64,000 nucleotides of DNA from an uncultured Alloprevotella sp. (GTDB taxonomy: Bacteria; Bacteroidota; Bacteroidia; Bacteroidales; Bacteroidaceae), in the NCBI GenBank assembly GCA_944322325.1, contig CALUOQ010000008.1:58271-122270 (forward strand). The letters run 5' to 3'. How positions within the stretch are numbered: position 1 is the stretch's first letter; the number at the start of each line of letters is the position of its first letter. Positions 7,161 to 60,290 of the stretch are shown here, in pieces. The translations under genes and the position numbers were made by a program. The notes under the pieces are model-generated. The model saw only the letters and a list, made by a program, of their open reading frames with translations. It ran no database searches and was not told the DNA's origin.

Positions 7161-7760
7161 TCACACCGCCACTTCCAGCGACGAGAGCAGCGTTTTAGCT
7201 TCTTCCGTCAGAGTGTCCGTGGGGAGGTGGCACAGGAGTTCTTCGGCCGCGCGGCGCCAGCGGTCGGCGTACGTCGCGGCATGGAGGTACGCCAGGGCGA
7301 GGGCCTTGCGGCTGTCGGGCAGGCACGTCTGCACCTCCCGCGCCGCGGCTTCGGTGAGGGAGGCGATGAGCGACTCGTCCGGCGGGAAAGTGCTCCGCAG
7401 GGCCACCGACGCGCGGGCCAGCGCAAGGGTGCGGACGCTTGACGACGAGGTCACATTTCCTCTCGCTGCGCCCGGTTTTCCTGTCGCTGCGATAGAAATC
7501 CCTGTCGCTGCGATAGAATTTCCTGTCGCTGCGATAGAAATTCCTGTCGCAGCGATAGGATTTTCTGTCGTAGCACTTGTTTTTCCTGTCACGGCACTTG
7601 TTCCGCCGGGCTGGGCCGCAGGTGTTTGCCGCGCCTGTCTGGCCAGCGCCTCCATCTCCGTGCGCAGCCCGTGCAGCTCACTGAGCGCCATGTCCTCCGA
7701 CGCCCGGAGCAGCCGCTCCGACGCACCGTACAGCGCGCGCCACAGGGCGCGCTGCTCCAT
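7161..7760 (-). CDS. UpxZ-like capsule operon regulator with in-frame repeat insertion
   Basis: 199 residues from the ATG at 7760 (MEQRALWRALYG). An in-frame GTG at 7835, overlapping the upxY stop, would add 25 basic residues. The helical N-terminus 'LHGLRTEMEALARQ' and the C-terminal half ('LALARASVALRSTF', 'LAYLHAATYADRW', 'LTEEAKTLLSSLE') follow the layout of UpxZ, and the position directly after upxY is where upxZ is found. UpxZ proteins in Bacteroides fragilis block the UpxY proteins of other capsule loci, so that one capsule dominates. Between the two halves lie about 49 residues made of heptads like I-A-A-T-G-I-S, encoded by seven 21-nt palindromic units (7459-7605). Assignment rests on layout and context, as sequence identity is low. 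Confidence 0.65.
   Translation of the reverse strand: MEQRALWRALYGASERLLRASEDMALSELHGLRTEMEALARQARQTPAAQPGGTSAVTGKTSATTENPIAATGISIAATGNSIAATGISIAATGKPGAARGNVTSSSSVRTLALARASVALRSTFPPDESLIASLTEAAAREVQTCLPDSRKALALAYLHAATYADRWRRAAEELLCHLPTDTLTEEAKTLLSSLEVAV
7459..7605. repeat. 21-nt palindromic repeat array, site 1 (inside the upxZ-like gene)
   Basis: Seven units of exactly 21 nt (147 nt, 49 codons). Unit 1 is degenerate, units 2-5 carry the core CTGTCGCWGCGATAG, and units 6 and 7 are end-type units (CTGTCGTAGCACTTGT, CTGTCACGGCACTTGT). The left end unit is missing or decayed. Because 21 is divisible by 3, any whole number of units keeps the reading frame. On the coding strand they read as heptapeptides with I-A-A-T-G. 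Confidence 0.95.
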
Positions 7761-7821
7761 TTCTACTTGGGGATTCACTCCGGTCTCTCCGTTTTTATTT
7801 CGTCTTCGTTTAGTTTCTCTC

Positions 7822-8352
7822 TCATTCCGCCGCACGGCAGTACCACTTCGGCACGTGAACCAAAACGCCCAGCGACGTCACCGTCAGCACCACGTACGAG
7901 CGGTTACGGTAACGCACCAGCCGCCCCTCAAGCCCCGCGAACGGGCCGCGGACCACCCTGACGCGGCTGCCCCGGCGCGCCTCGGCCGTCTCGGCGTCCA
8001 CGAAAAGCGTGTCCTCGTACCGGGGGTCGCTCACCGCGCGCAATTCAGCCATCTCGCGCTCCGATATCCGGCACCAGCGCCCCGACACCGTCACGTAGAT
8101 CCGCGAGGCAAAGGCGCTCCGCCGCAGCGCGTCACGCAAACGCGCCTCGCCGCCTGAGGGACAGCCCACAAACAGCAGGTTCCTCACCGCCGGGACCAGG
8201 CGGCGGTGAGGCCGCCCCTCGGCGTCCGCCACCTCCGACCAGCGCCGCGGCAGGAATACCTCCCAGCCCTCCGACGCCAGCTCGCCCTCCAGCCGCTCCT
8301 CGCGGCCGTGGAACACCTGAAGCGCGTACCACGCCAGCTCTCCCTCTTCCAT
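7822..8352 (-). CDS. UpxY-type NusG-like transcription antiterminator
   Basis: 176 residues. The N-terminal NusG-NGN-like part 'WYALQVFHGREERLEGELASEGWEVFLPR' is followed by 'RRLVPAVRNLLFVGCP', and the C-terminal KOW part is 'RRGSRVRVVRGPFAGLEGRL'. Length and architecture match the UpxY proteins encoded as the first gene of Bacteroides capsule operons, where each loads on its own operon leader and prevents premature termination. It starts at 8352, 105 nt from the inverted repeat of the presumed invertible promoter, leaving a leader in which it could act. The next gene is UpxZ-like. In the orientation seen here no promoter-like -7 box reads into it, so the whole operon is predicted silent until inversion. 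Confidence 0.88.
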   Translation of the reverse strand: MEEGELAWYALQVFHGREERLEGELASEGWEVFLPRRWSEVADAEGRPHRRLVPAVRNLLFVGCPSGGEARLRDALRRSAFASRIYVTVSGRWCRISEREMAELRAVSDPRYEDTLFVDAETAEARRGSRVRVVRGPFAGLEGRLVRYRNRSYVVLTVTSLGVLVHVPKWYCRAAE

Positions 8353-8457
8353 CGGACTCCACGTTTCTGACAGCTACACTTCCCGCTCTCCCCCGGCCCC
8401 CAAAGGGGACGGAAGGCGCTTGCAAGCCGGGAAGGATGGCCCCGGATTCCGTCTGCC

Positions 8458-8475
8458 TCTATATAAGAATGAGAA
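8458..8475 (+). repeat. Left inverted repeat of invertible segment
   Basis: TCTATATAAGAATGAGAA, 18 nt, exact reverse complement of 8725-8742. It is AT-rich against a GC-rich surrounding. It lies 105 nt upstream of the upxY start codon. Confidence 0.9.
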
Positions 8476-8661
8476 CTTTCGCCGCACCGCGCGGCGTTGC
8501 CGACGTGTCAGTACGCACACGCACAGCGCCTTACATCACGGGAAATGTAGTTGAAAAATCAATCCCTTTGACAGCCGTAAAGAGCGGGTTTCGGGAAAAC
8601 ACGCACGCCGACCCGCCGGAGACCCGCGCCGGGGCACAAATAAAAAAGTCCGCGGAAGTGC

Positions 8662-8689
8662 TTGGTATTCCGATTAATGCGTATCTTTG
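8662..8689 (+). promoter_or_regulatory. Promoter inside the invertible segment
   Basis: The -7 box TATCTTTG (8682-8689) matches TAnnTTTG fully. A TTGG at 8662-8665 could serve as -33 but is about 4 nt closer than usual. Transcription would start near 8696 and run rightwards across the right inverted repeat. Confidence 0.7.
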
Positions 8690-8701
8690 CAGCGTTGACC
8701 C

Positions 8702-8759
8702 AAGGCCCGCCAGCCCCTGTGAATTTCTCATTCTTATATAGAATGGACACGGGCCTTTT
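8702..8759 (+). terminator. Possible terminator formed only in the OFF orientation
   Basis: AAGGCCCG (8702-8709, inside the invertible segment) is complementary to CGGGCCTT (8750-8757, outside it), followed by TT. Between them the right inverted repeat can fold as CATTCT-TATAT-AGAATG. Inversion would separate the two halves, so the hairpin would exist only when the promoter points away from the operon. The pairing is only 8 bp with a long internal region. Confidence 0.4.
8725..8742 (-). repeat. Right inverted repeat of invertible segment
   Basis: TTCTCATTCTTATATAGA, the exact reverse complement of 8458-8475 (18 of 18). Confidence 0.9.
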
Positions 8760-8913
8760 CCCGGAAATTTTCTCTGACTTCTTCTTAATTATTATGGGGC
8801 TGATGAGGCGAATGGGGCCAATGGGACTAATGAGAAAAGGAGGGGGAAAGAGGCGTTTGGGGGCTTTTCGCTATTTTTTCCGACTCCTTGCTTGATTTTA
8901 TGGGGCTTCTTTC
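8743..8913. other. Non-coding stretch between invertible segment and GH89 terminator
   Basis: No gene is supported. It contains a Met/Gly-rich frame from a simple-sequence stretch (8793-8835, variations on ATGGGGC/AATGGGAC) and T-rich blocks. No promoter box was found in it. Confidence 0.6.
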
Positions 8914-8967
8914 AAAAAAACGCGAGGGGCGGAAACGGGTTTGAGCCGGTTTCCGCCCCTCGCGTTT
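8914..8967 (-). terminator. Rho-independent terminator after the GH89 gene
   Basis: A 19-bp stem (8918-8936 with 8949-8967, AAACGCGAGGGGCGGAAAC) is followed on the minus strand by seven T (A-run 8914-8920). It lies 11 nt beyond the stop codon of the GH89 gene. Confidence 0.9.
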
Positions 8968-8977
8968 GGGTGGGAGA

Positions 8978-11140
8978 TTATTCTGCGGTTGTGATTTGCC
9001 GGTAGGCGCGACGAGCTGCTTCGATGGGGTCGCCCTCGGCTGTGGAGGCGTAGGGCTTTGTCTCTTTCGTCCACGGCTCCTCGACGGCGTACCAGTCGAT
9101 GGAGGGTAGGGGCTCGCCCTGGTGGAGAGCCTGACTGGTGCGGTCCACCCACATTTCCCAGCGCTTGTAGTAGAAGTCGCGCAGGATGCCGTTCCATTCG
9201 CGGTGGGCGTAGTCGCGCAGTCCGCCGCGGTTGGCCGCCTCGCGGTTGCCCCACGTCGTGATGAGCGTGCGGGCGTTCCACTCGTAGTGGTCTTTCTCTT
9301 CGGGGGTAACGCCGAGTTTGCGTGCCCGGGCAATCCATGTGCCCACGCGGAACTCCGGTCGCGTGGCGAGCAGTTCGTCCTGCAACAGAATGAGGCTGAG
9401 GAAACGCTTGGCGGCGGCGTCGAAGAGCGCCGGTTCGTCGGCCTTGATGGCGTCGCGCATCACGGCGTAGACGAGGCGGCCCTTCTCGGCCACGGCCTGC
9501 CGCATGACGTCCACAAGGTCGTAGGCGTAGTTGTCGGAGCCCTGCAACTGGGGCGCGGCGTCGAGCAGGAGTCCCGCGGCGCGGATGACGTCGGTCGGGT
9601 TGTAGTAGTCCTTCATCTCGGACCACGAGGACACCTGATAGGCGTTGGCCGAAGGGCGCGCGCAGAAGATGGACTCGTGCGTGCCCTGCTGGGTGGACTG
9701 CGGCGGACAGTTGTAGATGGTGTTGCTAAGCAGGGTCCAGGCCTGTTGGGCGGCCGGGACGCTCTTGCCGTAGCGCGCCGTGACATAATCGGCGAGCCAT
9801 CCGTCCTTGGTCGTCGTGTCGGGTAGCCAGGGCAGGTCGCAGAGCAGTTCGTACATGACGGGATTGTTTTCCGAGCCCTCCATCGTCATGCCCACGCCGC
9901 GCATCGTGGCGTTGAAACGGCTGGCCCGTGCTTTGCGGAACTCGTCGAGCACGTGCTGCATCTTGCCGTGAAGTCCCACGTTGCCGCCATAGTTGAGTAG
10001 CATACAGTAGATCCAGTCGTGGCCGTCGAAGCCGTTCTCGCGCTTCCAGCCCGACTCTGGGTCGCCCCATTGCGGGCGGCTTTCGGCAAAGAGGTCGAGG
10101 GCGATAAGGTCGCCCTTGGGCAAACTCTTAATCATTTCGGGACGCGGATTGACCTGCCAGGCCTGCACGACCCAGGCCGCGTCGGGATTGCAGCGCTTCA
10201 TGGCGCCCAAAATAGCCTGCCCGGCGGCGTCGAGGTCCACGCCGGCCGTGTTGCCGCCCTCGTGGAAGGGGTCCATGGCGTAGTAGTTGGCCTTGCCGTA
10301 GAGGCGCGTCAGCTCGTCGTAGTAGAGCTCGGCGATTTCAGCAAAGCGCGGGTCCGTAGGTTGCAGGAAGGCCGGTCGGCGGTAGGCGCCCCAGAATCCC
10401 GGGTCGGACACGTTGAGGCCCAGTTTCTCGCGGGCGTCGTGGGGCAGCATGCCCGAGTAACCCGGCAGTACGGGCTCGATGTCCAACTCGCGCATCCGGC
10501 GCACGATGCGCTTCTGAAGGGCCTCCTGCTGGCGGTACCAGTTTTCCGAGTTGGGGCCTCCCCATCCCTCAAGGTTGTTCATGAGCCACCAAGCCTGAAA
10601 GGCGGGGCCGGCTACGAAAGCGTTGATTTCGTCCGTCGTATAGCCCAGTTTGTCGAGCACGTTGCGCCAAACGACGTCCGCTCCGGTCAGCGCCAGCGGC
10701 AGGTTGATGCCGTGGAGCGCCATCCAGTCTATTTCCTCCTCCCAGCGCTCCCAGTCCCAGAAGGCCATCGTGTAGGAAAACGTGCAGTAGTTCAGGTCGT
10801 AGCGCAGGTCGAGGTCGGTCTCGTGGCGCTCCGGTCGGGCGACGCGGGGCAGCGTTTCGGGCAGGTCGGCGTGCATGCCGTTCCACGAGAGGTGTATGTG
10901 GGCGTAATGCTTCAGGTACCAGTTCAGTCCCGTAGCCAGCGAGACGTAGTCGTTGCCGCGTATGACGACCTTGTCGCCCCGTTGGTCGAGCTCGAAGAAG
11001 TCCTTGTCGGACTTTACCTTCTCGAATACGAATTTTTTCGAGGCGCCCTCGTCGATGCGGTCTGCCAATTTTTCAATCGGCGTAGCCGCGTGTGTGGCCA
11101 GACCCAGGCAGAGCATGGCGGCGATGCAGATGTTTCTCAT
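8978..11140 (-). CDS. Alpha-N-acetylglucosaminidase, GH89 (NAGLU family)
   Basis: 720 residues from the ATG at 11140, chosen because it starts a signal peptide (MRNICIAAMLCLGLATHAA). An upstream in-frame ATG gives no signal. The NAGLU N-terminal domain is followed by a TIM-barrel with 'YDLNYCTFSYTMAFWDW', 'MALHGINLPLALTGADVVW', 'LPGYSGMLP', 'MDPFHEGG', 'AWVVQAWQVNP' and 'GVGMTMEGSENNPVMYELL', the last with the acidic catalytic residue region, then the helical C-terminal domain. The enzyme removes terminal alpha-linked GlcNAc, for example from gastric-type mucin glycans or heparan. Secretion suggests periplasmic or surface action. It is a single-gene unit with its own terminator. A GH20 enzyme lies 9 kb away, consistent with a host-glycan forager. 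Confidence 0.95.
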   Translation of the reverse strand: MRNICIAAMLCLGLATHAATPIEKLADRIDEGASKKFVFEKVKSDKDFFELDQRGDKVVIRGNDYVSLATGLNWYLKHYAHIHLSWNGMHADLPETLPRVARPERHETDLDLRYDLNYCTFSYTMAFWDWERWEEEIDWMALHGINLPLALTGADVVWRNVLDKLGYTTDEINAFVAGPAFQAWWLMNNLEGWGGPNSENWYRQQEALQKRIVRRMRELDIEPVLPGYSGMLPHDAREKLGLNVSDPGFWGAYRRPAFLQPTDPRFAEIAELYYDELTRLYGKANYYAMDPFHEGGNTAGVDLDAAGQAILGAMKRCNPDAAWVVQAWQVNPRPEMIKSLPKGDLIALDLFAESRPQWGDPESGWKRENGFDGHDWIYCMLLNYGGNVGLHGKMQHVLDEFRKARASRFNATMRGVGMTMEGSENNPVMYELLCDLPWLPDTTTKDGWLADYVTARYGKSVPAAQQAWTLLSNTIYNCPPQSTQQGTHESIFCARPSANAYQVSSWSEMKDYYNPTDVIRAAGLLLDAAPQLQGSDNYAYDLVDVMRQAVAEKGRLVYAVMRDAIKADEPALFDAAAKRFLSLILLQDELLATRPEFRVGTWIARARKLGVTPEEKDHYEWNARTLITTWGNREAANRGGLRDYAHREWNGILRDFYYKRWEMWVDRTSQALHQGEPLPSIDWYAVEEPWTKETKPYASTAEGDPIEAARRAYRQITTAE

Positions 11141-11342
11141 GCGGGTAATGTTGATGTGTAGTTGTACGGTTTGTTTTAGTCCGCCCGCAGGGAGCGGGTC
11201 TGCGACGGCAGACCGGACGAAATTAGGCATTTCCCCCGTAATGCGCAACCTTTCGGGGCGAAATATCCCCGCCGAAGCCGGAAATATCGGGGCGGCGAAC
11301 AGTTTTTGCGGGTCGGTCCGGCCGCGTATGTCCGCTTTTCGT

Positions 11343-11350
11343 TATTTTTG
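11343..11350 (+). promoter_or_regulatory. -7 promoter box for the esterase gene
   Basis: TATTTTTG matches TAnnTTTG, 70 nt before the ATG at 11421. No good -33 element is visible at the expected distance. Confidence 0.55.
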
Positions 11351-11420
11351 CGGGAGTGAAGTTGTCCGTATGGCGGGCGACGTATATTCGACGAATAAAC
11401 CTGATTTTAATTTTTGAGCA

Positions 11421-13517: not shown

Positions 13518-13602
13518 AAACAAGTACTACGATAGAAATTTCTGTCGCTGCGATAGGATTTTCTATCGTAGTACTTGTTTCGGACGGAGACTACACTTGT
13601 TT
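13518..13602. repeat. 21-nt palindromic repeat array, site 2
   Basis: An end unit at 13518-13538, a core unit at 13539-13559 (CTGTCGCTGCGATAG) and an inverted end unit at 13560-13580. The two ends are perfect 21/21 reverse complements and share the variant CTATCGTAGTACTTGT. A degenerate further end unit (GACTACACTTGTTTTT) reaches 13602. It lies between the metallophosphoesterase and the promoter of the efflux cluster. The rest of the 13379-13682 gap holds only this and the promoter. Confidence 0.95.
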
Positions 13603-19669: not shown

Positions 19670-19774
19670 ACAAGTACTACGACAGGAAAAACAAGTACTA
19701 CGACAGGAAATCCTGTCGCAGCGATAGGAATTTCTGTCGTAGTACTTGTTTTTTCAGGGACTACGCGGAGCGTT
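19670..19774. repeat. 21-nt palindromic repeat array, site 3
   Basis: Two tandem end units (19670-19690, 19691-19711: ACAAGTACTACGACAGG), one core unit (19712-19732, CTGTCGCAGCGATAG) and an inverted end unit (19733-19753, CTGTCGTAGTACTTGT). A degenerate fifth (CAGGGACTACG) runs to 19774. It sits between czcC and the GH20 promoter. Confidence 0.95.
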
Positions 19775-19866: not shown

Positions 19867-22062
19867 ATGGATTTCAGTTTACTGAAGAAGATTTGTCTGG
19901 CGGGTGCGCTGGCCTGTGGCGTCGCGCTGCCTGCCTGGAGCGAGGACCTCAACGTGGTGCCTCGCCCGCTCAAGATGCAGCAAACCGAAGGAGCGTTCCG
20001 GCTGACGGCGGACGCCGTGATAGGCTATGACGCCGGCGTGCGCGAGCAGGCCGAGTATCTGCAACAGTTGCTGCAAGGCTCGACCGGTTGGACGCTCGAG
20101 CTGAAGGAAGGAGCGCGCAAGGCCGACATCCGGCTGACCCTTGCGCCCGACGAGGTGAAGGCAGCCGAGGGCTACCGCCTCAGCGTGACGCCGAAGGCGG
20201 TGAGCGTTGTCGGCGCGGACGCCAGCGGCGTGTTCTACGGCATCCAGACCCTCCTGCAACTTTTCCCGCCGCAGGTGTACAACGACCGGCCCCAGCGCGG
20301 CGTGGAGTGGGAGGCTCCGTGTGTCGAGGTCAGCGATGCGCCCTGCCGGCCCTGGCGCGGCATGATGCTCGACGTCGCCCGCTACTTCTTCGATAAGGAT
20401 TTTGTGAAGAAGTACATCGACATGATGGCCATGTACAAGCTCAATAAACTCCAGTTCCACCTTATCGACGACTCGGGCTGGCGTCTGGAAATCAAGAAGT
20501 ACCCCCGTCTGACCGAAGTCGGCGCCTGGGCGGGTCCGGACAGCAAGCGCCTCGGCGGATACTATACGCAGGAGGACATACGGGAGATTCTGGACTACGC
20601 GCGGGTAAGGGGCGTGGAAGTCATCCCGGAGATTGAGTTTCCGGCTCATATCCTCTCGGCCGTCGTGGCCTACCCTTGGCTGTCGTGCACCGGCGAGCAG
20701 CACCAAGTGCCGCGTCAGCATTTCATCAGCCGCGACCTGCTGTGTGCCGGTAAGGAATCCTCGTACAAGTTCCTCGCCGACGTGCTTGAGGAAACGGCGG
20801 ACCTGTTTCCCTCGAAGTACATCAACATTGGCGGCGACGAGGCCGTATACACGCGGTGGGAGCAGTGCCCGGACTGCCAGGCCGTGATGAAGCGCGAGGG
20901 GCTGACCAAAGCGTCGCAACTACAGGGCTACATGACCAACCGCGTGCTGGAAATGATGGGAAAGAAAGACCGCACCGTGATAGGCTGGGAGGAAATCATC
21001 CAGCGCGGCAAGCTGAACGACCCCGTCGTCGCCCTCATCTGGCACCGGGTGGGCGACACGATTCAGGCCACACAGACCGGGCACAAAGCCATCCTGACGC
21101 CGGCGACACACATGTACCTGGACTTCCCCGAAAGCCGGACACCGGGCGAGGTGAAGGCAGCCACGTGGATGCCGCCCATTTCGGTGGAGAAATGTTACAG
21201 CATGGACGTGAACGATTACTCCGCGCAGTCGACCGTCATCGGCGTGCAGGGCTGTCTGTGGAGCGACCAGTTCATCCACGGCGAAGTGTTGCAGGAAATC
21301 ACGCCCCTCAACGAAGACCGCTCCGAGCGCTACGCCGAATACCTCACTTTCCCGCGATTGCTGGCCGTTTCGGAAGTGGCGTGGACGCCTAAGGCCCGGC
21401 GCGACTACGCCGACTTTGCCCAGCGCCTCACTACGCAGTATGCCCGTCTCGACAACAAGGATTGCAGCTACCGCGTGCCCGAACCGCGCATCACCGCAAT
21501 GGAGCAGACGGAGGGCGGCTGGCGCTTCACGCTCGAGCCGAGCGTGGCCGGCGCCGACATACGCTACACGACCGACGGCAGCTACCCGAACATCCACTCG
21601 CCCCGCTACACCGGGCCGGTGGCCGTGGCGGACAAGAACGACTTCCACGCCATGACGGTGGTCACCTCGCGCCATTTCTCCCTGCCTACTTATTTCGCGC
21701 CCGACTATTCGGCCTACAAGCAGTACGGCGAGTTTACGGCGCAGTGGAAGCCGCTGGAGATACAGACGAAGCCCGCGACGTGGCGCTTTGAGTGCACGGG
21801 AAAAATATCGGGCAACGGGACGTACGAACTGACGTTCGTGCAGACGCGCGGCAGCAACCCCCTCGTGCTCGGCGGGCTGAAGCTCCTGAAGCGCGATGAA
21901 CAACTGGCCACGGTGGCCACGGGTGGCAAGACGGCCCCGACGACCACGTACACCTTCACGGTCGACGCCTTCGAGGCCGGTACGCCCTTCTTCATCGAGG
22001 TCGAGGCTTACGGCGAGGGTGGCAACGACACGGCCGGCCTTGTCTTCCTCAAGAAAAAATAG
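19867..22062 (+). CDS. Beta-N-acetylhexosaminidase, GH20
   Basis: 731 residues with signal peptide ending 'ALPAWSEDL'. The GH20b domain 'VVPRPLKMQQTEGAFRL' is followed by the catalytic barrel: 'PWRGMMLDVARYF', 'HLIDDSGWRLEIKKYPRLTE', 'EVIPEIEFPAH' and the catalytic pair 'INIGGDEAVYTRW' (D324, E325). Near the C-terminus 'IRYTTDGSYPNIHSPRY' is the CHB_HEX_C chitobiase domain, and the remaining about 120 residues form a beta-rich extension. It removes terminal beta-GlcNAc or GalNAc by substrate-assisted catalysis in the periplasm or on the cell surface. The next gene starts 6 nt later, so co-transcription with the DUF4424-like gene is likely. Confidence 0.95.
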   Translation: MDFSLLKKICLAGALACGVALPAWSEDLNVVPRPLKMQQTEGAFRLTADAVIGYDAGVREQAEYLQQLLQGSTGWTLELKEGARKADIRLTLAPDEVKAAEGYRLSVTPKAVSVVGADASGVFYGIQTLLQLFPPQVYNDRPQRGVEWEAPCVEVSDAPCRPWRGMMLDVARYFFDKDFVKKYIDMMAMYKLNKLQFHLIDDSGWRLEIKKYPRLTEVGAWAGPDSKRLGGYYTQEDIREILDYARVRGVEVIPEIEFPAHILSAVVAYPWLSCTGEQHQVPRQHFISRDLLCAGKESSYKFLADVLEETADLFPSKYINIGGDEAVYTRWEQCPDCQAVMKREGLTKASQLQGYMTNRVLEMMGKKDRTVIGWEEIIQRGKLNDPVVALIWHRVGDTIQATQTGHKAILTPATHMYLDFPESRTPGEVKAATWMPPISVEKCYSMDVNDYSAQSTVIGVQGCLWSDQFIHGEVLQEITPLNEDRSERYAEYLTFPRLLAVSEVAWTPKARRDYADFAQRLTTQYARLDNKDCSYRVPEPRITAMEQTEGGWRFTLEPSVAGADIRYTTDGSYPNIHSPRYTGPVAVADKNDFHAMTVVTSRHFSLPTYFAPDYSAYKQYGEFTAQWKPLEIQTKPATWRFECTGKISGNGTYELTFVQTRGSNPLVLGGLKLLKRDEQLATVATGGKTAPTTTYTFTVDAFEAGTPFFIEVEAYGEGGNDTAGLVFLKKK

Positions 22063-26688: not shown

Positions 26689-26784
26689 CGAAGTGTAGTC
26701 CCCGGCTTAACGAACGTAGTCCCAGGAATTTCTGTCGCAGCGATAGAATTTTCTGGGACTACGTTCGTATTCGTTAACACTTCG
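26689..26784. repeat. 21-nt palindromic repeat array, site 4
   Basis: End unit 26710-26730 with arm ACGAACGTAGTCCCAG, core unit 26731-26751 (CTGTCGCAGCGATAG) and inverted end unit 26752-26772 with arm CTGGGACTACGTTCGT. The arm sequence differs from every other site but is perfectly complementary within this one. Outer CGAAGTGT (26689-26696) and ACACTTCG (26777-26784) extend the symmetry. It lies between rprY and dnaA. Confidence 0.95.
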
Positions 26785-26903: not shown

Positions 26904-28319
26904 ATGGAAGTTCAGAAAGCCCGGGAGGCGTGGGAACAATGCCTCCGGTTCATCCGCGAAAACGTACCGCAGGAACAGACGTTCCGCACGTGGTTCGAAC
27001 CGTTGAAGTTCGTTAGCCTTGTTGACAAAAACAACGAGCGCCAGCTCACCGTAAGCGTACCCAGCCAGTTTGTCTACGAGGTCATCGAGGAACACTACCT
27101 CGGACTCATGCGCGCCGCTATACGCCAGGCTTTCGGCGAGGGCATCCTGCTCATGTACCGCGTCGAGGTGGACAAGAGCAGCCGCAGCAAGACAAGCATA
27201 GCGTCGTCCGGCTCGTCGCCCTCGGTGAAGGGGCATACGCCTGCCGCCGCGCCGCTTGTTCCCGACGGACCGCCCACGCCTACGGTGGTGCAGGACGTCG
27301 ACCCGAACCTGAACCCCGACTATACGTTCGAGAACTTCCTTGAAGGCGAGAGCAACAAGCTCGCGCGCAGCGTCGGCCTGTCCATTGCCGACAACCCGAC
27401 CAGCGTCACGTTCAACCCGTTTTTCGTTTACGGCCCGTCGGGCGTGGGCAAGACTCACTTGGCCAACGCCATCGGCGTACGCATCAAGGAGCGCACGCCC
27501 GAGCGGCGCGTGCTGATGGTTTCGGCCCATCTCTTCATGGTGCAGTACACCGATTCCGTTCGCCACAACACGACCAACAGCTTCATCAACTTTTATCAGA
27601 GCGTCGACGTCCTGATTATCGACGACATCCAGGAGCTTACCACGCCGCGCACTCAGCAAACTTTCTTCCATATCTTCAATCACCTGCATCAGAACAAGCG
27701 ATTGCTGATCATGACGTGCGACCGCCCGCCCGCCCAGCTCGAAGGCATGGAGGACCGGCTTCTGAGTCGCTTCAAGTGGGGTATGGCCGCCTCGCTCTCC
27801 CGTCCGGACGCCCTGTTGCGCCGGCGCATACTCGAGTCGAAGATACGGCGCAACGGACTGTCGATTTCGGCCGATGTGGTCAGTTACATTGCCGAAAATG
27901 TCAGCAGCAATGTGCGCGAGCTCGAAGGAGTCGTCAATTCGCTCATGGTGCAAAGTATCGTCGACAACCGCGACATCGACGTCAGTATGGCGGCGCAGGT
28001 GGTCAGTCGCCTGATTAATCTCGAAAAGCGGGAACTCACCGCCGAGGCCATCACCAAGAGCGTGTGCAAGCACTACGGCGTGAAGGAGCGCGACGTCGCC
28101 TCGCCCAGCCGTAAGCGTGACATCGTGCAGGCCCGGCAGCTGGCCATGTACCTGAGCCAGAAGTACACGGACCTGCCGCTGACCGAAATCGGGCGGCGTG
28201 TAGGAAAGCGCGACCATTCCACCGTGTTGCACGCTTGCCGGCAAGTCGAAAAACGCCTTTCCATCGACATGGATTTCCGTCGCGAAGTCGAAGAGGTGGA
28301 AGGTCAGCTTTTCGTGTAA
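26904..28319 (+). CDS. dnaA: Chromosomal replication initiator DnaA
   Basis: 471 residues from the ATG at 26904, which gives the family start MEVQKAREAWEQCLRFI. Domain I ('TFRTWFEPLKF'), a variable Ser/Pro linker (about 90-130), then AAA+ domain with Walker A 'GPSGVGKTHLANAI', Walker B 'VLIIDDIQEL' and sensor motifs. Domain IV ends with the DnaA-box-binding signature 'GKRDHSTVLHACRQV'. It unwinds oriC. I see no cluster of DnaA boxes or AT-rich unwinding element beside the gene, so the origin need not be here. It lies 18 nt before recQ and may share its transcript. Confidence 0.97.
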   Translation: MEVQKAREAWEQCLRFIRENVPQEQTFRTWFEPLKFVSLVDKNNERQLTVSVPSQFVYEVIEEHYLGLMRAAIRQAFGEGILLMYRVEVDKSSRSKTSIASSGSSPSVKGHTPAAAPLVPDGPPTPTVVQDVDPNLNPDYTFENFLEGESNKLARSVGLSIADNPTSVTFNPFFVYGPSGVGKTHLANAIGVRIKERTPERRVLMVSAHLFMVQYTDSVRHNTTNSFINFYQSVDVLIIDDIQELTTPRTQQTFFHIFNHLHQNKRLLIMTCDRPPAQLEGMEDRLLSRFKWGMAASLSRPDALLRRRILESKIRRNGLSISADVVSYIAENVSSNVRELEGVVNSLMVQSIVDNRDIDVSMAAQVVSRLINLEKRELTAEAITKSVCKHYGVKERDVASPSRKRDIVQARQLAMYLSQKYTDLPLTEIGRRVGKRDHSTVLHACRQVEKRLSIDMDFRREVEEVEGQLFV

Positions 28320-32525: not shown

Positions 32526-32609
32526 ACAAGTACTACGACAGAAAAAACTGGGACTACGCCAGGATTTCCTGTCGTAGTACTTGTTGTGACCGGTCGCAGC
32601 ACTTGTCCG
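32526..32609. repeat. 21-nt palindromic repeat array, site 5
   Basis: End unit 32526-32546 (ACAAGTACTACGACAG), variant unit 32547-32567 (CTGGGACTACGCCAGG, resembling the site-4 arm), inverted end unit 32568-32588 (CTGTCGTAGTACTTGT) and a further end-like unit 32589-32609 (CGGTCGCAGCACTTGT). No core unit is present. It lies between the mutarotase gene and the nuo promoter. Confidence 0.92.
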
Positions 32610-44246: not shown

Positions 44247-44607
44247 GCGCGTTGTAGGGAGAGCCTGTGGCTTCCTTTCCCTACTATTCTCGGGAGACAT
44301 CCGGCCTGAAAGGCATGTTCGTCTGGCATTTCTGGGGAACAGGAAACCAGTGCTATTTAATCCGGAGACAAGGTTTCCGGTAGCGGTAGGTTCGAAAAAA
44401 CAGAGGGAAAAGCAGTGTGTCTGCGTCTTTGGCGGTTTATTGTTTCCTTGACAGTGGGATACAGTTTGGGGACACCCTTAAGGAGAAAGCAGTACACCAC
44501 AAATGTAAGAAAAAAGCCGCATACACCGGGCTGTGGCGCTCTATTTTTCGCTTATCGCAGATTGCTGAGGGCAGGAGGAAGTCCGGATAGTTCGTCCCAC
44601 AAGGCAC

Positions 44608-44667
44608 AAAAAAAGGGATACCGCTGTATCCCAACCTTGTTAACCTTAAACTAATACTATGAAAAAC
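44608..44667 (-). ncRNA. Candidate small RNA with own promoter and terminator
   Basis: On the minus strand a -7 box TATCTTTG (44681-44674) with a CGTTGG -33 box (about 44704) predicts a start near 44667. About 35 nt later comes a terminator hairpin GGGATAC-AGCG-GTATCCC (44632-44615) followed by seven T (to 44608). The transcript would be about 60 nt and contains TTTAAGGTTAACAAGGTTGG, with no convincing reading frame. It could be a free small RNA or an attenuated leader. The next gene downstream (recombinase) is 380 nt away. Confidence 0.5.
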
Positions 44668-44673
44668 ACAGTG

Positions 44674-54310: not shown

Positions 54311-54793
54311 TTAGGGCATGACGGACTTGACGGCGGGGAAGAGCTGTGCGAGCTCGTCGACGAGCTGCTGGCGCGTCAGGTCCTCAGCCATGATGATGAG
54401 CACGGTGTCGTCGCCGGCCAGAGTGCCGACAATGCCGGCCAACGAGCTGGCGTCGATTTCGACAGCCATACCGGCGGCGTAGCCCGGTCGCGTGTGCATC
54501 ACGGCCAGATTGCCCGAGAAGTCGAGCGAGATGAAGCCCGACTGGCGCAGATAGTCGGGCGCGAGACGCAGTTCGCCGTTGCGCCGGTAGAGCGGGTGCT
54601 CGGGCAGCACGTAGACGAAGCCTGTCTCGGTGGAGATTTTCACGGCTTTCATGCGGCGCAGGTCGCGCGAAAGGGTGGCTTGGGTCACGCTGAAACCGCG
54701 TTCGGCCAGCTGTTTGAGAATCTCGTTTTGTCCGCCTACGCGCTGCTTCAGCAGGATGTCGCGCAGGACTTCAATGCGGTCTATTCTTTTCAT
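54311..54793 (-). CDS. argR: Arginine repressor
   Basis: 160 residues from ATG 54793 (MKRIDRIEVLRDILLKQRVGG). An N-terminal winged helix ('NEILKQLAERGFSVTQATLSRDLRRMKAVKI') with the ArgR 'SR' recognition helix, then the C-terminal hexamerising, arginine-binding domain ending 'IVGTLAGDDTVLIIMAED'. It senses arginine and represses the arg genes. It is the first gene of the operon, 51 nt before the GNAT gene, with a -7 box 25 nt upstream. The AT-rich stretch 54855-54885 (TATGCATAAG, ATAATTTATG) could be an ARG-box-like operator, weakly supported. Confidence 0.92.
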   Translation of the reverse strand: MKRIDRIEVLRDILLKQRVGGQNEILKQLAERGFSVTQATLSRDLRRMKAVKISTETGFVYVLPEHPLYRRNGELRLAPDYLRQSGFISLDFSGNLAVMHTRPGYAAGMAVEIDASSLAGIVGTLAGDDTVLIIMAEDLTRQQLVDELAQLFPAVKSVMP

Positions 54794-54817
54794 GACGTTC
54801 GTTATTGGATTTGCCTG

Positions 54818-54825
54818 CAAAGGTA
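54818..54825 (-). promoter_or_regulatory. -7 promoter box of the arginine operon
   Basis: CAAAGGTA on the plus strand (TACCTTTG in operon direction), 25 nt before the argR ATG. The other contents of 54794-55198 are repeat site 6 and the divergent promoter of the ATPase gene. Confidence 0.65.
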
Positions 54826-55006
54826 AGCATAATTTTTCGCACCACCTCGCTAAATATGCATAAGTTTGGAATAATTTATGGGAATCCTCTTTTTGTCGCC
54901 TCTTCCAGGGCCGTGGGACCGGTTTTCGCCCGCTTTCTTGCCGGCGACGCTGCTCCGGCCGTCCCGTTGGCAGCACTTGGCCGAACGGGGTGTACAGGTC
55001 GGAAAA

Positions 55007-55090
55007 ACAAGTGCTACGACCGGAATTTCTATCGCTACGACAGGAATTTCTATCGCCGCGATAGGATTTTCTGTCGTAGCACTTGTGTGG
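55007..55090. repeat. 21-nt palindromic repeat array, site 6
   Basis: End unit 55007-55027 (ACAAGTGCTACGACCG), inner units 55028-55048 (CTATCGCTACGACAG) and 55049-55069 (CTATCGCCGCGATAG, a perfect palindrome), inverted end unit 55070-55090 (CTGTCGTAGCACTTGT). Both arms have the GTGC/GCAC variant and differ at one position. It lies between the divergent argR and ATPase promoters. Confidence 0.94.
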
Positions 55091-55198: not shown

Positions 55199-56380
55199 AT
55201 GGAAACCTTTTTTCAGACGCACGCATACTTGATAGAACAGACCAACGCTCCCGTCCGTCGTGCTCTCATGGACAGCATAGACTGGAACTACCGCATGATA
55301 GGCATCAAGGGCCCCCGCGGTGTGGGCAAGACGACGTTTCTGCTACAGTATGCCAAGGAGAATTTCGAGCCGGGTATGCGCCAGTGTCTGTACGTCAACA
55401 TGAACAGCTTCTACTTCCAAGGGCGCGGGCTCGTGGACTTTGCCGACGAGTTCTATCGTGGCGGCGGGCAGGTGCTGCTCGTCGACCAGGCGTTCAAACT
55501 GCCCGACTGGCGGCAGGAGCTCTGTGCGTGCTATCGGCGCTTTGCCCGGCTGCGCATCGTCTACACCACTTCGTCCGTCGAGACGGCCGACGAGCAGGAC
55601 GACGAGCTGACGCAGATAAGCCGTTGCTACGTGCTTCACGGCTTCTCCTTCCGCGAGTTTGTCAACCTGCAGACTGGAGGAAACCTGGCGGCTTACAGTC
55701 TCGACGAGATACTCCATGACCACGAGCGCATCCTCAAGGCGATTTTGCCCAAGGTACGTCCGTGGCAGTACTTCCAGGACTATCTGCACCATGGCTACTA
55801 TCCCTTTTATCTCGAGAGCCGCAATTTCACCGAGAACCTCCTCAAGGCGATGAACATGATGATTGAGGTTGACATCCTCTTCATCAAGCAAATCGAACTC
55901 AAGTACTTGTCGCGCATCAAGAAGCTGCTCTATCTGCTGGCGTCGGACGGCGCTGCCAGTCCCAACGTGAGCAGCCTGGCCGCGGCTATCGGGACGTCGC
56001 GCGCCACGGTGATGAACTACCTGAAGAATCTCGAAGAGGCGCGGCTCATAAACCTCGTCTATCGCGAGGGAGAAGCCTTTCCCAAGAAGCCCGCCACCGT
56101 GATGCTCCACGACACCAATCTGATGTACGCCGTCTACAACCCGAGTCTCAGCGAGCAACATATTATGGAGTGCTTCTTCGTCAACAGTCTGTGGCGTCAC
56201 CACGCAGTCCATCGCGGCAAGCGCGACGGCGTCTACCGCGTCGACGGCCTGAAGGACATCTGCGTCTGTGACAAGCGTCGCCGTATGAAAACCGACGAGT
56301 CCCTCTACTACGCCCGCTACAACGCCGAGGTGGGTCGCGGTCGCGAGATTCCGATATGGCTTTTCGGCTTTCTTTATTAA
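55199..56380 (+). CDS. AAA-14/DUF4143-type ATPase with altered Walker B
   Basis: 393 residues. Walker A 'GIKGPRGVGKTTFLLQY' (about 36-52), then 'VLLVDQAFKLPDWRQEL' (about 92-108), where family members normally read D-E-x-H-K. Here the catalytic Glu is Gln (Q97) and the His is Phe. 'LRIVYTTSSVET' is the sensor strand, then the winged-helix 'AAIGTSRATVMNYLKNLEEARLI' and the DUF4143 C-terminus with 'FFVNSLWRHHAVHRGK' and a short nuclease-like end. These ATPases are widespread in Bacteroidales and of unknown role. 50 nt before nifJ. Confidence 0.8.
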   Translation: METFFQTHAYLIEQTNAPVRRALMDSIDWNYRMIGIKGPRGVGKTTFLLQYAKENFEPGMRQCLYVNMNSFYFQGRGLVDFADEFYRGGGQVLLVDQAFKLPDWRQELCACYRRFARLRIVYTTSSVETADEQDDELTQISRCYVLHGFSFREFVNLQTGGNLAAYSLDEILHDHERILKAILPKVRPWQYFQDYLHHGYYPFYLESRNFTENLLKAMNMMIEVDILFIKQIELKYLSRIKKLLYLLASDGAASPNVSSLAAAIGTSRATVMNYLKNLEEARLINLVYREGEAFPKKPATVMLHDTNLMYAVYNPSLSEQHIMECFFVNSLWRHHAVHRGKRDGVYRVDGLKDICVCDKRRRMKTDESLYYARYNAEVGRGREIPIWLFGFLY

Positions 56381-56430
56381 GCAGGACAATCCTAACAAAC
56401 AATACAACGCACATAACAATTTTAAGCATT

Positions 56431-59400
56431 ATGGCAAAGGAAAAGAAATTTATCACTTGTGATGGCAACCAGGCCGCTGCGCATATCGCGTATATGTTCT
56501 CGGAAGTCGCAGCTATCTACCCCATCACACCGTCGTCGCCCATGGCGGAACACGTCGACGAGTGGGCCGCACAGGGTCGCAAGAACCTTTTCGGCGATAC
56601 CGTGACGGTACAGGAAATGCAGTCCGAAGGCGGTGCGGCCGGTGCCGTACACGGTTCGTTGCAGGCCGGCGCGCTGACGACCACGTTCACCGCGTCGCAG
56701 GGTCTGCTGCTGATGATTCCCAACATGTACAAGATTGCCGGCGAACTGCTGCCCTGCGTGTTCCACGTGTCGGCCCGCACGCTGGCCACTCACTCCCTGT
56801 GTATCTTCGGTGACCACAGCGACGTCATGGCCTGCCGCCAGACGGGCTTCGCCATGCTGTGCGAAGGCTCGGTGCAGGAGGTGATGGACCTTTCGGCTGT
56901 CGCCCACTTGGCTACCATTGAGAGCCGCGTGCCTTTCATTAACTTCTTTGACGGTTTCCGCACCTCCCACGAGTACCAGAAGATTGAGGAAATCGACCAG
57001 GAGGACCTCCGTCCGCTCGTCGACCAAAAGGCGCTGAGCGAGTTCCGCGCCCGTGCCCTTTCGCCCGAACATCCGGTAGCCCGCGGTATGGCTGAGAATC
57101 CCGAGACCTTCTTCGCACATCGCGAGAGCTGCAATGCATACTACGACGCGGTGCCCGCCATTGTCGAGAAGTATATGGCCGAAGTCTCCAAGATTACGGG
57201 CCGCGATTACAAACTCTTCAGCTATTATGGCGCCGACGACGCCGAGCGCGTCATCATCTGCATGGGTTCCGTCACCGAGGCCGCCCGTGAAGCCATCGAC
57301 TACCTTAACAAGAAAGGCGAGAAGGTCGGCATGGTCAGCGTGCACCTCTACCGCCCGTTCTCGGTGAAGCATTTGCTCGCAGCAGTGCCTGCGACCTGCA
57401 AGCGCATTGCCGTGCTCGACCGTACCAAGGAACCCGGTGCTTCCGGCGAGCCGCTCTATCTCGACGTCAAGGACGCTTATTACGGCCAGGAGAATGCCCC
57501 GCTCATCGTGGGTGGCCGCTACGGTCTCGGTTCGTGCGACACGACGCCGACGATGATTATCTCCGTTTACGACAACCTTGCCCTGCCGACGCCGAAGGAC
57601 CACTTCACGCTCGGTATCGTCGACGACGTGACGTTCACCTCCCTGCCGCTTGAAAAGGAGATGGCGCTCGGCGGCGAAGGCATCTTCGAAGCGAAGTTCT
57701 ACGGCCTCGGTGCGGACGGTACGGTCGGCGCCAACAAAAACTCCGTCAAGATTATCGGCGACAATACCGACAAGTATTGCCAGGCCTACTTCTCTTACGA
57801 CTCTAAGAAGTCCGGTGGTTTCACCTGCTCGCACCTGCGTTTCGGTGACCACCCCATCCGTTCCACCTATCAGATTAAGACGCCAAACTTCGTCGCCTGC
57901 CATGTTCAGGCCTACCTGCACATGTACGACGTGCTCCGCGGTCTGCGCGACGGCGGCACCTTCCTGCTCAACACCATTTGGGAGGGTGACGAGCTGGCCG
58001 CCAATCTGCCGAACAACGTCAAGCGTTATTTCGCCGAGCACCACATCACGGTTTACTACATCAACGCCACGAAGATCGCACAGGAGATTGGCCTGGGCAA
58101 CCGCACCAACACCATCCTCCAATCCGCTTTCTTCCGCATCACGCAGGTCATCCCCGTTGACCTCGCCGTCGAGCAGATGAAGAAGTTTATCGTCAAGTCT
58201 TACGGCAAGAAGGGTCAGGACGTCGTTGACAAGAACTATCAGGCCGTTGACCGCGGTGGCGAATACAAGGAGCTCGCTGTCGATCCCGCCTGGGCCAGCC
58301 TGCCCGCCGATCCGGCCGTAGAGCGCGACGAACCCGCCTACATCAGCGACCTCGTCCGTCCTATTAACGCTCAGAACGGCGACCTGCTACCCGTTTCGGC
58401 ATTCAACATCTCCGTAGACGGCACCTGGGAGCAGGGCACGGCCGCTTACGAGAAGCGCGGCGTCGCTGCATTCGTCCCCGAGTGGATTCCTGAGAACTGC
58501 ATCCAGTGCAACAAGTGCGCCTATGTCTGCCCGCACGCTGCCATCCGCCCGTTCGTGATGGACGACGAGGAGGTCAAAGGCTTCACCGCCACGACGCTCG
58601 AGATGAAGGCCCCGGCTGCCATGAAGGGAATGCACTTCCGCCAGCAGGTCGACGTGCTCGACTGTCTCGGCTGCGGCAACTGTGCCGACGTCTGCCCGGG
58701 TCTGCGTGGCAACAAGGCACTCGTCATGAAACCGCTCGAGACTCAGATGGCCGAAGCCGACAACTGGGAATACTGCGTCAAGAACGTGAAGACCAAGCAG
58801 CACCTTGTCGACATCAAGCAGAATCCCAAGAACTCCCAGTTCGCCACGCCGCTCTTCGAGTTCTCCGGCGCATGCTCCGGTTGCGGCGAGACGCCCTACG
58901 TCAAGCTCATCTCGCAGCTCTTCGGCGACCGTCAGATGATTGCCAACGCCACCGGCTGCTCGTCCATCTACTCCGGTTCCATCCCCTCGACGCCTTACAC
59001 GAAGAACGAGAAGGGTCAGGGTCCCGCTTGGGCCAACTCGCTGTTCGAGGACTTCTGCGAGTTCGGCTTGGGCATGGTGCTGGCCAACAAGAAGATGCGC
59101 AATCGCATCCAGAGCCTGCTCGAGCAGTCGCTGGCCGACGAGCACGTGCCCGCCGAGTTCAAGGAGGCCGCTCAGGCTTGGATTGCCGGCCGCGAGGACG
59201 CCGACGCCAGCCGCGCCGCCGCCGACAAGCTCGCGCCGATGATTGAGGCCGCCAAGGGCCAGTGCCCCGTCTGCGCCCAGCTCGCCGAGCTGACGCACTA
59301 CCTCACCAAGCGCAGCCAGTGGATCATTGGTGGCGACGGCGCGTCGTACGACATCGGTTACGGCGGTCTGGACCACGTGCTGGCCAGCGGTGAGGACGTC

Positions 59401-59979
59401 AACATCCTCGTGCTCGACACCGAAGTCTACTCCAACACCGGCGGTCAGGCCTCCAAGGCCACGCCGCTCGGCGCCATCGCCCAGTTTGCCGCAGCGGGCA
59501 AGCGCGTGACCAAGAAGGACCTCGGTCTCATGCAGACCACCTACGGCTACATCTACGTCGCCCAAATTGCCATGGGGGCCGACCAGGCGCAGACTCTGAA
59601 AGCCATCCGCGAAGCCGAAGCCTACCCCGGACCCTCGCTCATCATTGCCTACGCACCCTGCATCAACCACGGCCTCAAGGCCAAGGGCGGCATGGGCAAG
59701 AGCCAGGCTGAGGAAGCCAAGGCCGTCGAGTGCGGCTACTGGCAGCTGTGGCGCTTCAATCCCGCGCTCGAAGCCGAGGGCAAGAACCCCTTCACCCTCG
59801 ATTCGAAGGAGCCCGACTGGTCGAAGTTCCAAGACTACCTCAACGGCGAGGTCCGCTTCCTCTCGCTGAAGAAGGCCCGTCCCGCCGAGGCTCAGGAGCT
59901 CTTCGACAAGACCGAGGAGGCCGCCAAGCGCCGCTACGCCAGCTATGTGCGCAAGGCCAAGGAGGACTGGAGCCTCTAA
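56431..59979 (+). CDS. nifJ: Pyruvate:ferredoxin (flavodoxin) oxidoreductase
   Basis: 1182 residues, the fused homodimer type. From ATG 56431 (MAKEKKFITCDGNQAAAHIAY), domain I has 'IYPITPSSPMAEHVDEW'. The ferredoxin domain shows 'CIQCNKCAYVCPHAAI' and 'CLGCGNCADVCP', and the TPP domain 'GDGASYDIGYGGLDHVL' with 'SNTGGQ'. A further Cys for the proximal cluster is in 'FSGACSGCGETPYVKL'. It makes acetyl-CoA, CO2 and reduced ferredoxin from pyruvate. The ferredoxin could feed the NuoEFG-less complex I. A strong terminator follows. Confidence 0.97.
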   Translation: MAKEKKFITCDGNQAAAHIAYMFSEVAAIYPITPSSPMAEHVDEWAAQGRKNLFGDTVTVQEMQSEGGAAGAVHGSLQAGALTTTFTASQGLLLMIPNMYKIAGELLPCVFHVSARTLATHSLCIFGDHSDVMACRQTGFAMLCEGSVQEVMDLSAVAHLATIESRVPFINFFDGFRTSHEYQKIEEIDQEDLRPLVDQKALSEFRARALSPEHPVARGMAENPETFFAHRESCNAYYDAVPAIVEKYMAEVSKITGRDYKLFSYYGADDAERVIICMGSVTEAAREAIDYLNKKGEKVGMVSVHLYRPFSVKHLLAAVPATCKRIAVLDRTKEPGASGEPLYLDVKDAYYGQENAPLIVGGRYGLGSCDTTPTMIISVYDNLALPTPKDHFTLGIVDDVTFTSLPLEKEMALGGEGIFEAKFYGLGADGTVGANKNSVKIIGDNTDKYCQAYFSYDSKKSGGFTCSHLRFGDHPIRSTYQIKTPNFVACHVQAYLHMYDVLRGLRDGGTFLLNTIWEGDELAANLPNNVKRYFAEHHITVYYINATKIAQEIGLGNRTNTILQSAFFRITQVIPVDLAVEQMKKFIVKSYGKKGQDVVDKNYQAVDRGGEYKELAVDPAWASLPADPAVERDEPAYISDLVRPINAQNGDLLPVSAFNISVDGTWEQGTAAYEKRGVAAFVPEWIPENCIQCNKCAYVCPHAAIRPFVMDDEEVKGFTATTLEMKAPAAMKGMHFRQQVDVLDCLGCGNCADVCPGLRGNKALVMKPLETQMAEADNWEYCVKNVKTKQHLVDIKQNPKNSQFATPLFEFSGACSGCGETPYVKLISQLFGDRQMIANATGCSSIYSGSIPSTPYTKNEKGQGPAWANSLFEDFCEFGLGMVLANKKMRNRIQSLLEQSLADEHVPAEFKEAAQAWIAGREDADASRAAADKLAPMIEAAKGQCPVCAQLAELTHYLTKRSQWIIGGDGASYDIGYGGLDHVLASGEDVNILVLDTEVYSNTGGQASKATPLGAIAQFAAAGKRVTKKDLGLMQTTYGYIYVAQIAMGADQAQTLKAIREAEAYPGPSLIIAYAPCINHGLKAKGGMGKSQAEEAKAVECGYWQLWRFNPALEAEGKNPFTLDSKEPDWSKFQDYLNGEVRFLSLKKARPAEAQELFDKTEEAAKRRYASYVRKAKEDWSL

Positions 59980-60008
59980 ACCCGCGCGACGAATCCTTTT
60001 TCCCCATT

Positions 60009-60052
60009 CCCGCCCGGCCGGCCGCAAGGTCCGCGCCGGGCGGGACTTTTTT
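60009..60052 (+). terminator. Terminator after nifJ
   Basis: CCCGCCCGGC (60009-60018) with GCCGGGCGGG (60035-60044), followed by ACTTTTTT (60045-60052). Confidence 0.9.
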
Positions 60053-60143
60053 GTGCCTCCGCGCGGAGGACTTGCCCGTTGGGGAGTCGGTCTGCGGTGT
60101 CGGGCACGGGAACTGTGAAGTTTTGCGGGTTGCTTCTGCAAAA

Positions 60144-60290
60144 TCTGTCGCAGCGTTAGGAATTTCTGTCGCAGCGTTAGGAATTTCTGTCGCAGCGTTA
60201 GGAAAATCTGTCGCAGCGTTAGGAAAATCTGTCGCAGCGTTAGGAAAATCTGTCGCAGCGATAGGAAATCCTACCTGTAACGGTAGAAAA
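60144..60290. repeat. 21-nt palindromic repeat array, site 7
   Basis: Six head-to-tail units of 21 nt (60144-60269). The first five share CTGTCGCAGCGTTAGG, differing only in the AT-rich linker, and the sixth has the family core CTGTCGCAGCGATAG. A degenerate seventh (CTACCTGTAACGGTAG, itself a palindrome) ends at 60290. There are no end units. The rest of the 59980-60420 gap holds the nifJ terminator and the next promoter. Confidence 0.95.

What the first reader, a model, noticed from the sequence alone, without database searches (positions are those of the whole stretch)
7459..60290. Seven-locus family of modular 21-nt palindromic repeats
Units of exactly 21 nt with core CTGTCGCWGCGATAG (6-bp arms around 3 nt) occur at 7459, 13518, 19670, 26689, 32526, 55007 and 60144, in numbers from three to seven. 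Four arrays (sites 2, 3, 4 and 6) show end unit, one or more inner units, inverted end unit. Site 5 has inverted end units around a variant unit and no core. I do not recognise the family. Possible roles include a REP/RAYT-like mobile element, a nucleoid or topology element, or an RNA structure.
Basis: seen in the sequence. Interest (0 to 1): 0.85.

Follow-up and report, generated by a model that had tools for sequence, protein, structure and literature searches.

The report
Modular 21-bp repeat arrays in Alloprevotella
This Bacteroidales bacterium carries many short arrays built from 21-letter near-palindromic bricks, a close relative carries the same design spelled differently, and many related genome pieces hold repeat arrays with almost the same 21-23-letter spacing, which points to a shared but still unidentified process.

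Summary
In detail: seven arrays of 21-nt units (34 core-like hits against 3.9 in shuffles). They belong to a dispersed family: 38 arrays in 400 kb of one contig. All 223 exact copies of the seven commonest units in 864 kb lie inside arrays of three or more. The genus is probably Alloprevotella. Sister genome G030 uses the same syntax with other half-sites (its end unit: 121 hits, 0 in G000). Forty of 45 arrays are intergenic; others sit in frame inside genes such as dnaX and, in G030, rho and ftsK, 12 of 13 checked in one codon phase. Two paralogues differ by exactly two units. More widely, 35 of 75 named Bacteroidales loci have a tandem array of period 21-23 nt, against 1 for 19-20, 5 for 24 and 0 for 25-26, with unrelated unit sequences. 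No RAYT gene was found in the assembly; linkers do not pair; core orientation ignores transcription. Best reading: a DNA-level, BOX/BrickBuilt/RPE-like non-autonomous repeat homogenised within each lineage; the acting factor is unknown.

The parts
7460..7600 (+). Array 1: degenerate unit, four core units, two degenerate end units (7 units), in frame with the weakly scoring ORF 7161-7760 (-); paralogue on contig C5 has two units fewer
13521..13599 (+). Array 2: CAAGTACTACGATAG / core / CTATCGTAGTACTTG / outer degenerate unit (22-nt step)
19671..19748 (+). Array 3: two CAAGTACTACGACAG units, core, inverted end unit
26690..26767 (+). Array 4: CGAACGTAGTCCCAG / core / CTGGGACTACGTTCG plus outer unit; 136 nt upstream of the called start of dnaA (26904-28319 +); no array seen at this place in sister G030
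32527..32605 (+). Array 5: inverted CAAGTACTACGACAG end units around CTGGGACTACGCCAG, no core, outer unit after a 22-nt step; upstream of the nuo operon; G030 has an array in its own dialect after the orthologous upstream gene
55008..55085 (+). Array 6: four units between an ArgR-type gene (54311-54976 -) and an AAA_14 gene (55199-56380 +); none seen in about 300 nt upstream of the second gene in G016 and G030
60145..60264 (+). Array 7: five CTGTCGCAGCGTTAG units and one core, then degenerate repeats to about 60290

Best explanation
The seven sites are copies of a dispersed, non-autonomous DNA repeat. Its basic form is an array of three or more 21-bp bricks, each a 15-bp near-palindrome made of two half-sites (CAAGT, CTGTC/CTATC, CTGGG, CGGGG and a few others around a RYWRY centre) plus a 6-bp A/T-rich linker. 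Shown: many copies (about 260 if contig C1 is typical), exact units not found alone, two paralogous arrays differing by exactly two units, arrays present or absent at matching places in a sister species, a sister genome that shares the syntax but uses different half-sites, and coding arrays that keep one reading phase. Inferred: arrays spread to new places where they are tolerated (between genes, and in flexible protein linkers), and copying or recombination between copies keeps the arrays of one lineage alike (concerted evolution). The acting unit is DNA, probably recognised two helical turns at a time by a dimeric protein or recombination enzyme that I could not identify and that is probably not a RAYT.
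For: Own genome: 130+86 core hits, control 0; 122+133 end-unit hits at up to 2 mismatches, control 2; 38 arrays in an unselected 400 kb; 95 arrays in 864 kb, 400 kb of which was chosen for containing hits. 223 of 223 exact copies of the seven commonest units in that 864 kb lie in arrays of at least 3 units. Dialects: exact core 87 in G000, 2 in G030, 0 in the 56 other same-genus genomes; CTGTCAGCCGTCC 121 in G030, 0 in G000, 1 each in 2 of the other 56; linker-centred motif 174 places in G000 and 1-2 in 24 of 300 other family genomes drawn, a draw that missed G030 and G047, 31 in 251 kb of G030. Paralogue pair differing by 42 nt. Eight matching stretches of G000 and G030 read by eye: arrays in both in 3 (one of these with only two clear units in G030), own only 2, sister only 2, neither in the part shown 1. 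Arrays in frame in DnaX, HU+LysM and LysM proteins (own) and in Rho, FtsK, Amidase_3, protein kinase and GT11 proteins (G030); same codon phase in 12 of 13 checked. By eye the array peptide is in G030 Rho only among 9 aligned and in G000 DnaX only among 9 aligned, in linkers of variable length (G030 DnaX was not in that alignment).
Against: No enzyme, target duplication or clean empty site was found. The three shared places could be independent insertions, because arrays occupy a large part of the long intergenic regions. The inverted arrangement is only weakly above shuffles over all 89 triplets. Whether the array jumps as a whole or grows from a small seed is unknown. The wider 21-23-nt class includes arrays with unrelated sequence, which a simple transposon would not explain.
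Confidence: 0.55

Rival explanations
1. Binding arrays for a dimeric nucleoid, topology or segregation protein: bricks of two helical turns place all sites on one face of the DNA, and the dialect changes because the protein's specificity changes.
For: Near-palindromic bricks, 21-nt spacing, A/T tracts in phase, at least three units per array; periods of 21-23 nt preferred in Bacteroidales loci; no orientation relative to genes.
Against: Arrays inside protein linkers of dnaX, rho and ftsK look like tolerated insertions. At 4 of 8 matching stretches only one of the two species shows an array. Dyad symmetry is not enriched in the wider class (11 of 69 arrays of period 21-23 against 10 of 48 of other periods at p<0.05, outside own/G030). 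No protein identified.
Confidence: 0.2
2. Sequence-independent local minisatellites: Bacteroidaceae replication or repair makes tandem duplications of about 21-23 nt, and these arrays are one outcome.
For: Period excess independent of sequence: named loci 22 nt 24 and 23 nt 8 arrays against 20 nt 1 and 19, 25, 26 nt 0; several unrelated arrays side by side in one intergenic region; unit-number change of exactly two units.
Against: Does not explain hundreds of dispersed copies with the same half-sites, or linkers that depend on the neighbouring half-sites. Other periods also occur (43 arrays over the 25 other periods 14-41 in the same loci, 8 of them 14 nt).
Confidence: 0.17
3. REP/REPIN-type element moved by a RAYT (Y1) transposase.
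For: High-copy extragenic palindromes, some in inverted pairs; Y1_Tnp genes occur in relatives (55 of 91 genomes).
Against: No Y1_Tnp in the own assembly (90.7% complete, so absence is not final), none in G030 (86% complete) although it is rich in arrays; 1 of 30 fetched RAYT loci holds a 21-nt array.
Confidence: 0.04
4. RNA-level element (terminator, mRNA stabiliser, structured leader).
For: Inverted end units can form a hairpin flanked by A and T runs.
Against: Gene-pair orientation of 40 intergenic arrays resembles all gaps of at least 150 nt (-- 13, -+ 12, ++ 9, +- 6 against 36/33/29/18). The G.U-friendly core orientation is on the transcribed strand in 5 of the 10 asymmetric core units of the intergenic ++ and -- rows. 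Linkers across the dyad are not complementary (3.31 of 6 against 3.75 in shuffles) and the C/T variant agrees in 14 of 24. No Rfam match at the arrays.
Confidence: 0.04

Closest known systems
BrickBuilt MITE of Porphyromonas gingivalis (PMC4596501: abstract, passages and section 5 read)
   Same: Bacteroidales; dispersed arrays of a 23-nt tandem unit, species-specific, intergenic, variable unit number
   Different: There 19 copies with leader and tail of up to about 300 nt and IS5-like terminal repeats; here about 260 copies implied, no leader or tail seen by eye, modular inverted half-sites, a dialect in a sister species, in-frame copies
BOX elements of Streptococcus pneumoniae (structure recalled; PMC3049150 seen only in a search listing)
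   Same: Modular: end module, variable number of middle modules, other end module
   Different: Here the bricks are 21 bp, near-palindromic themselves, and share half-sites between end and middle modules
Rickettsia palindromic elements (PMC10969869: passages read)
   Same: Palindromic repeats that also lie in frame inside unrelated genes
   Different: RPEs are about 150-bp single elements; these are arrays of 21-bp bricks with changing unit number
E. coli BIME / REPIN-RAYT (recalled)
   Same: Hundreds of extragenic palindromes, alternating orientation
   Different: No RAYT found; 21-bp tandem brick; dialect turnover between sister species

Membership tests
REP/REPIN-RAYT system | Cognate Y1 (RAYT) transposase in the genome, typically flanked by REPs | tested here: not met
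   0 Y1_Tnp matches in G000, 0 in G030; assemblies 90.7% and 86% complete; 1 of 30 fetched RAYT loci holds a 21-nt array
BrickBuilt MITE | 23-nt unit with the consensus printed in PMC4596501 | tested here: not met
   Unit is 21 nt and unlike the printed consensus by inspection
BrickBuilt MITE | Leader and tail with IS5-like terminal inverted repeats | tested here: inconclusive
   No common leader or tail seen by eye in the 46-nt flanks of the 45 arrays printed; IS ends of the genome were not catalogued
MITE in general | Target-site duplications and a parent transposase | not tested
   No clean empty site found; of transposase families only Y1_Tnp was searched
BOX element | Pneumococcal boxA/boxB/boxC sequences | not tested
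   Architecture compared from memory only
Rickettsia palindromic element | In-frame insertion into unrelated genes | tested here: met
   15 arrays lie in called ORFs (5 own; 10 in G030); 12 of the 13 put through share one codon phase, and from the coordinates one of the other two does; nine of ten scanned host proteins have Pfam families
Rickettsia palindromic element | About 150-bp element of a known RPE family | tested here: not met
   Array of 21-bp units instead; RPE size from PMC10969869; RPE sequences were not compared
CRISPR | Repeats separated by unique spacers | tested here: not met
   Linkers are 6-nt A/T-rich strings that recur between arrays

The most novel reading that the evidence does not exclude
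Bacteroidaceae possess a lineage-specific system with a ruler of two in-vivo helical turns (21-23 bp) that creates, spreads and homogenises tandem brick arrays of nearly any sequence, giving a species its own high-copy dialect, and that also rewrites disordered linkers of essential proteins.
Probability: 0.28. Interest if true: 0.82.

Novelty: new variant of a known kind. Interest (0 to 1): 0.62.

Why it matters
It links one strange repeat to a wider regularity: tandem arrays in the Bacteroidales loci scanned peak sharply at 21-23 nt although their sequences are unrelated. That makes the question 'which protein or enzyme measures two turns of DNA here?' testable, offers a bacterial case that looks like concerted evolution of dispersed repeats between sister species, and shows repeats inside conserved housekeeping proteins in frame.

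Tried and rejected
RAYT, RNA structure or terminator and CRISPR were considered and set aside for the reasons given above.

Replication-direction polarity of the asymmetric core was compared with GC skew on 32 own segments: no consistent relation by eye.

Class-wide dyad symmetry was tested and not supported: outside own/G030, 11 of 69 arrays of period 21-23 against 10 of 48 of other periods at p<0.05; own/G030 5 of 28 by consensus, a test blunted by mixed half-sites.

The period peak is not everywhere. In 20 same-genus contigs (268 kb) there were 7 arrays at 21-23 against 8 at other periods 14-41, five of them 18 nt, and three of the seven lie in called ORFs; other-family genomes of the order gave 1 against 4; G004 0 against 2.

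One search used a wrongly written pattern (7-letter linker), so its near-zero result says nothing. One search repaired the idea, but its family draw did not include G030 or G047; those were counted in fetched stretches (31 in 250,675 bases; 1 in 15,792 bases).

Virus contigs: five with one end-unit match each and no neighbouring units by eye, taken as chance. Plasmids: no match for array 2.

Paper searches; only BrickBuilt came close. PMC5771137 was seen as passages only. Most subscription papers are not in that library, so 'not described' is limited to it.

Gene calls are from my own simple hexamer caller. Of the 10 G030 arrays in called ORFs eight were translated and phased; left out were L257:1210, which does not look like a real array and by its coordinates has another phase, and L274:3075, in a 186-nt ORF, same phase. 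The ORFs at L261:7886 (the one exception) and L275:12242 are probably N-terminal over-calls. In one search genes were called only in loci of 15 kb or more, so its intergenic counts are not used here. The single-unit control was a plain shuffle: 132 single hits at up to 2 mismatches in 464 kb against 41 per 100 kb in the shuffle, so loose single units are not in excess.
Full report
Observation. The seven sites are real. The core pattern with up to three mismatches occurs 34 times in the window against a shuffle mean of 3.87. Over 464 kb (400 kb of contig C1 plus the window) successive units are 21 nt apart in 136 of 148 cases and 22 in 9. TRF also finds period 21 at sites 1, 3, 6 and 7.

The genome. 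The window is G000:C8:58271-122270 in a 2.72-Mb, 33-contig, 90.7%-complete assembly. The 75 NuoCD relatives found are Bacteroidales where named that far, best Candidatus Caccomonas at 88%. Same-genus genome G057 has a contig 1 of 529,595 bases, the length of the Alloprevotella sp. Lung230 contig, so the genus is probably Alloprevotella (inference).

Anatomy. Each brick is 15 nt plus a 6-nt linker. Over 95 arrays in 864 kb (400 kb of this was chosen for containing hits) the commonest half-sites are CAAGT 206, CTGTC 196, CTATC 189, CGGGG 55 and CTGGG 40; the centre is mostly RYWRY (ACTAC 216, GCAGC 135, GCTAC 42, each with its complement). Linkers between two CTRTC half-sites are mostly A(n)T(n)-like; between CAAGT and CTGTC they are A-runs in 21 of 21. 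Arrays hold 3-8 units, 73 of 95 of them 4 or 5. All 223 exact copies of the seven commonest units lie in such arrays. Around CTRTC/CTRTC centre units the flanking units are inverted in 32 of 89 triplets and direct in 10; over all 89 the excess of inverted likeness over shuffles is small (9.92 against 9.30, 41 of 2000 shuffles reach it).

Not base pairing. In the 32 inverted triplets the two linkers are not complementary (3.31 of 6 against 3.75 in 2000 shuffles) and the C/T variant of the end units agrees in 14 of 24. The position CAAGT(A/G) does agree in 22 of 24, but it follows unit type. Core orientation does not follow transcription, and the gene-pair context resembles that of all long gaps. 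No Rfam family matches the arrays.

Spread. The exact core occurs 87 times in G000, 2 in G030, 1 in G067 and 0 in the other 147 of 150 genomes, and once each in 2 of 147 other phylum genomes. G030 has the best DNA match to the array-6 region, with 67-87% identity in its aligned pieces. It has 42 listed arrays in 251 kb, at least one of them doubtful, with the same 21-nt frame and linkers but other half-sites, such as CGGGACGGCTGACAG and CTGTCGCAGTGACAG. One G030 end unit, CTGTCAGCCGTCC, occurs 121 times there, never in G000, and once each in two of the 56 others. G047 shows a third spelling on the one contig fetched. Of eight matching stretches of G000 and G030 read by eye, three have arrays in both species in different spelling (one with only two clear units in G030), two only in G000, two only in G030, and one shows none in the part printed.

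Change by whole bricks, and coding copies. The ORF at 7161-7760 has a paralogue on C5; both carry an array, and the window copy has exactly 42 nt more. Forty of 45 arrays are intergenic (coding fraction 0.85-0.88); in G030 32 of 42. The others lie in called ORFs, among them DnaX, HU+LysM and LysM proteins here, and Rho, FtsK, Amidase_3, a protein kinase and a GT11 enzyme in G030. Of 13 put through the test 12 share one codon phase; two more G030 arrays, not put through it, split one and one by the coordinates. That phase spells A/T/E/N/K/P-rich heptads, in Rho and DnaX in linkers that vary in length among relatives. I read this as tolerated insertion or expansion, as described for Rickettsia palindromic elements (PMC10969869 passages).

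A wider class. Scanning for tandem self-similarity, 75 named Bacteroidales loci (1.30 Mb) give 19, 24 and 8 arrays at periods 21, 22 and 23, against 0 at 19, 1 at 20, 6 at 24 and 0 at 25 and 26; the 25 other periods from 14 to 41 together give 43, the most at 14 nt (8). Thirty-five of 75 loci have at least one of 21-23. G057 has 12 in 220 kb against 5 at other periods, ten family genomes 5 against 1; but 20 same-genus contigs give 7 against 8, G004 0 against 2, ten genomes of other families of the order 1 against 4 in 181 kb, and E. coli none in 100 kb. Unit sequences differ between species, and some regions hold two or three unrelated arrays side by side. Dyad symmetry is not a general property of this class. 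BrickBuilt of P. gingivalis, 23 nt (PMC4596501), fits the class by period and may be its one described case. The period matches two helical turns at in-vivo twist (established knowledge, applied here by inference).

RAYT. No Y1_Tnp in G000 or G030. Of 91 genomes searched 55 have one, but only 1 of 30 fetched RAYT loci holds a 21-nt array.

Verdict. A dispersed, DNA-level, brick-built repeat with dialects, most like BrickBuilt, BOX and RPE elements; it fails tested features of BrickBuilt and RPE, and BOX membership was not tested. The enzyme or binding protein is unknown. The most novel open reading is a family-wide process with a 21-23-bp ruler.

Noticed in passing
window 44605-44669 (-): FopS paralogous sRNA of Bacteroidetes, Rfam RF04319, 65.9 bits.
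   Followed up: no
window 26904-28319 (+): dnaA with array 4 136 nt upstream of its called start; no array seen there in sister G030, so the array is unlikely to be an essential origin part.
   Followed up: partly
G000:C1 near 55.7, 58.0 and 168.9 kb (first and last also in L001, L004): A second dispersed repeat, GTAGGGGCGCGCCGCAGGCACGCCCG and near variants, REP-like with a GTAG start, beside several arrays; its 13-nt start is not enriched in the window.
   Followed up: partly
L046:19920-20230 and 20650-20790; L049:7050-7340: Unrelated tandem arrays of period 21-22 side by side in one intergenic region.
   Followed up: partly
L262:11488 and L263:5166 (G030): A second 21-nt family in G030, TTTCACGACGTGAAA-like.
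   Followed up: no
G057 stretches L145, L216-L225: Several different 21- and 22-nt array families in one genome, one by eye with the same 15+6 design, CTACCTCWGAGGTAG plus A/T linker.
   Followed up: partly
L261:16466 and L272:8415: Arrays of G030 lie where gene order changes relative to G000; possibly recombination points.
   Followed up: no
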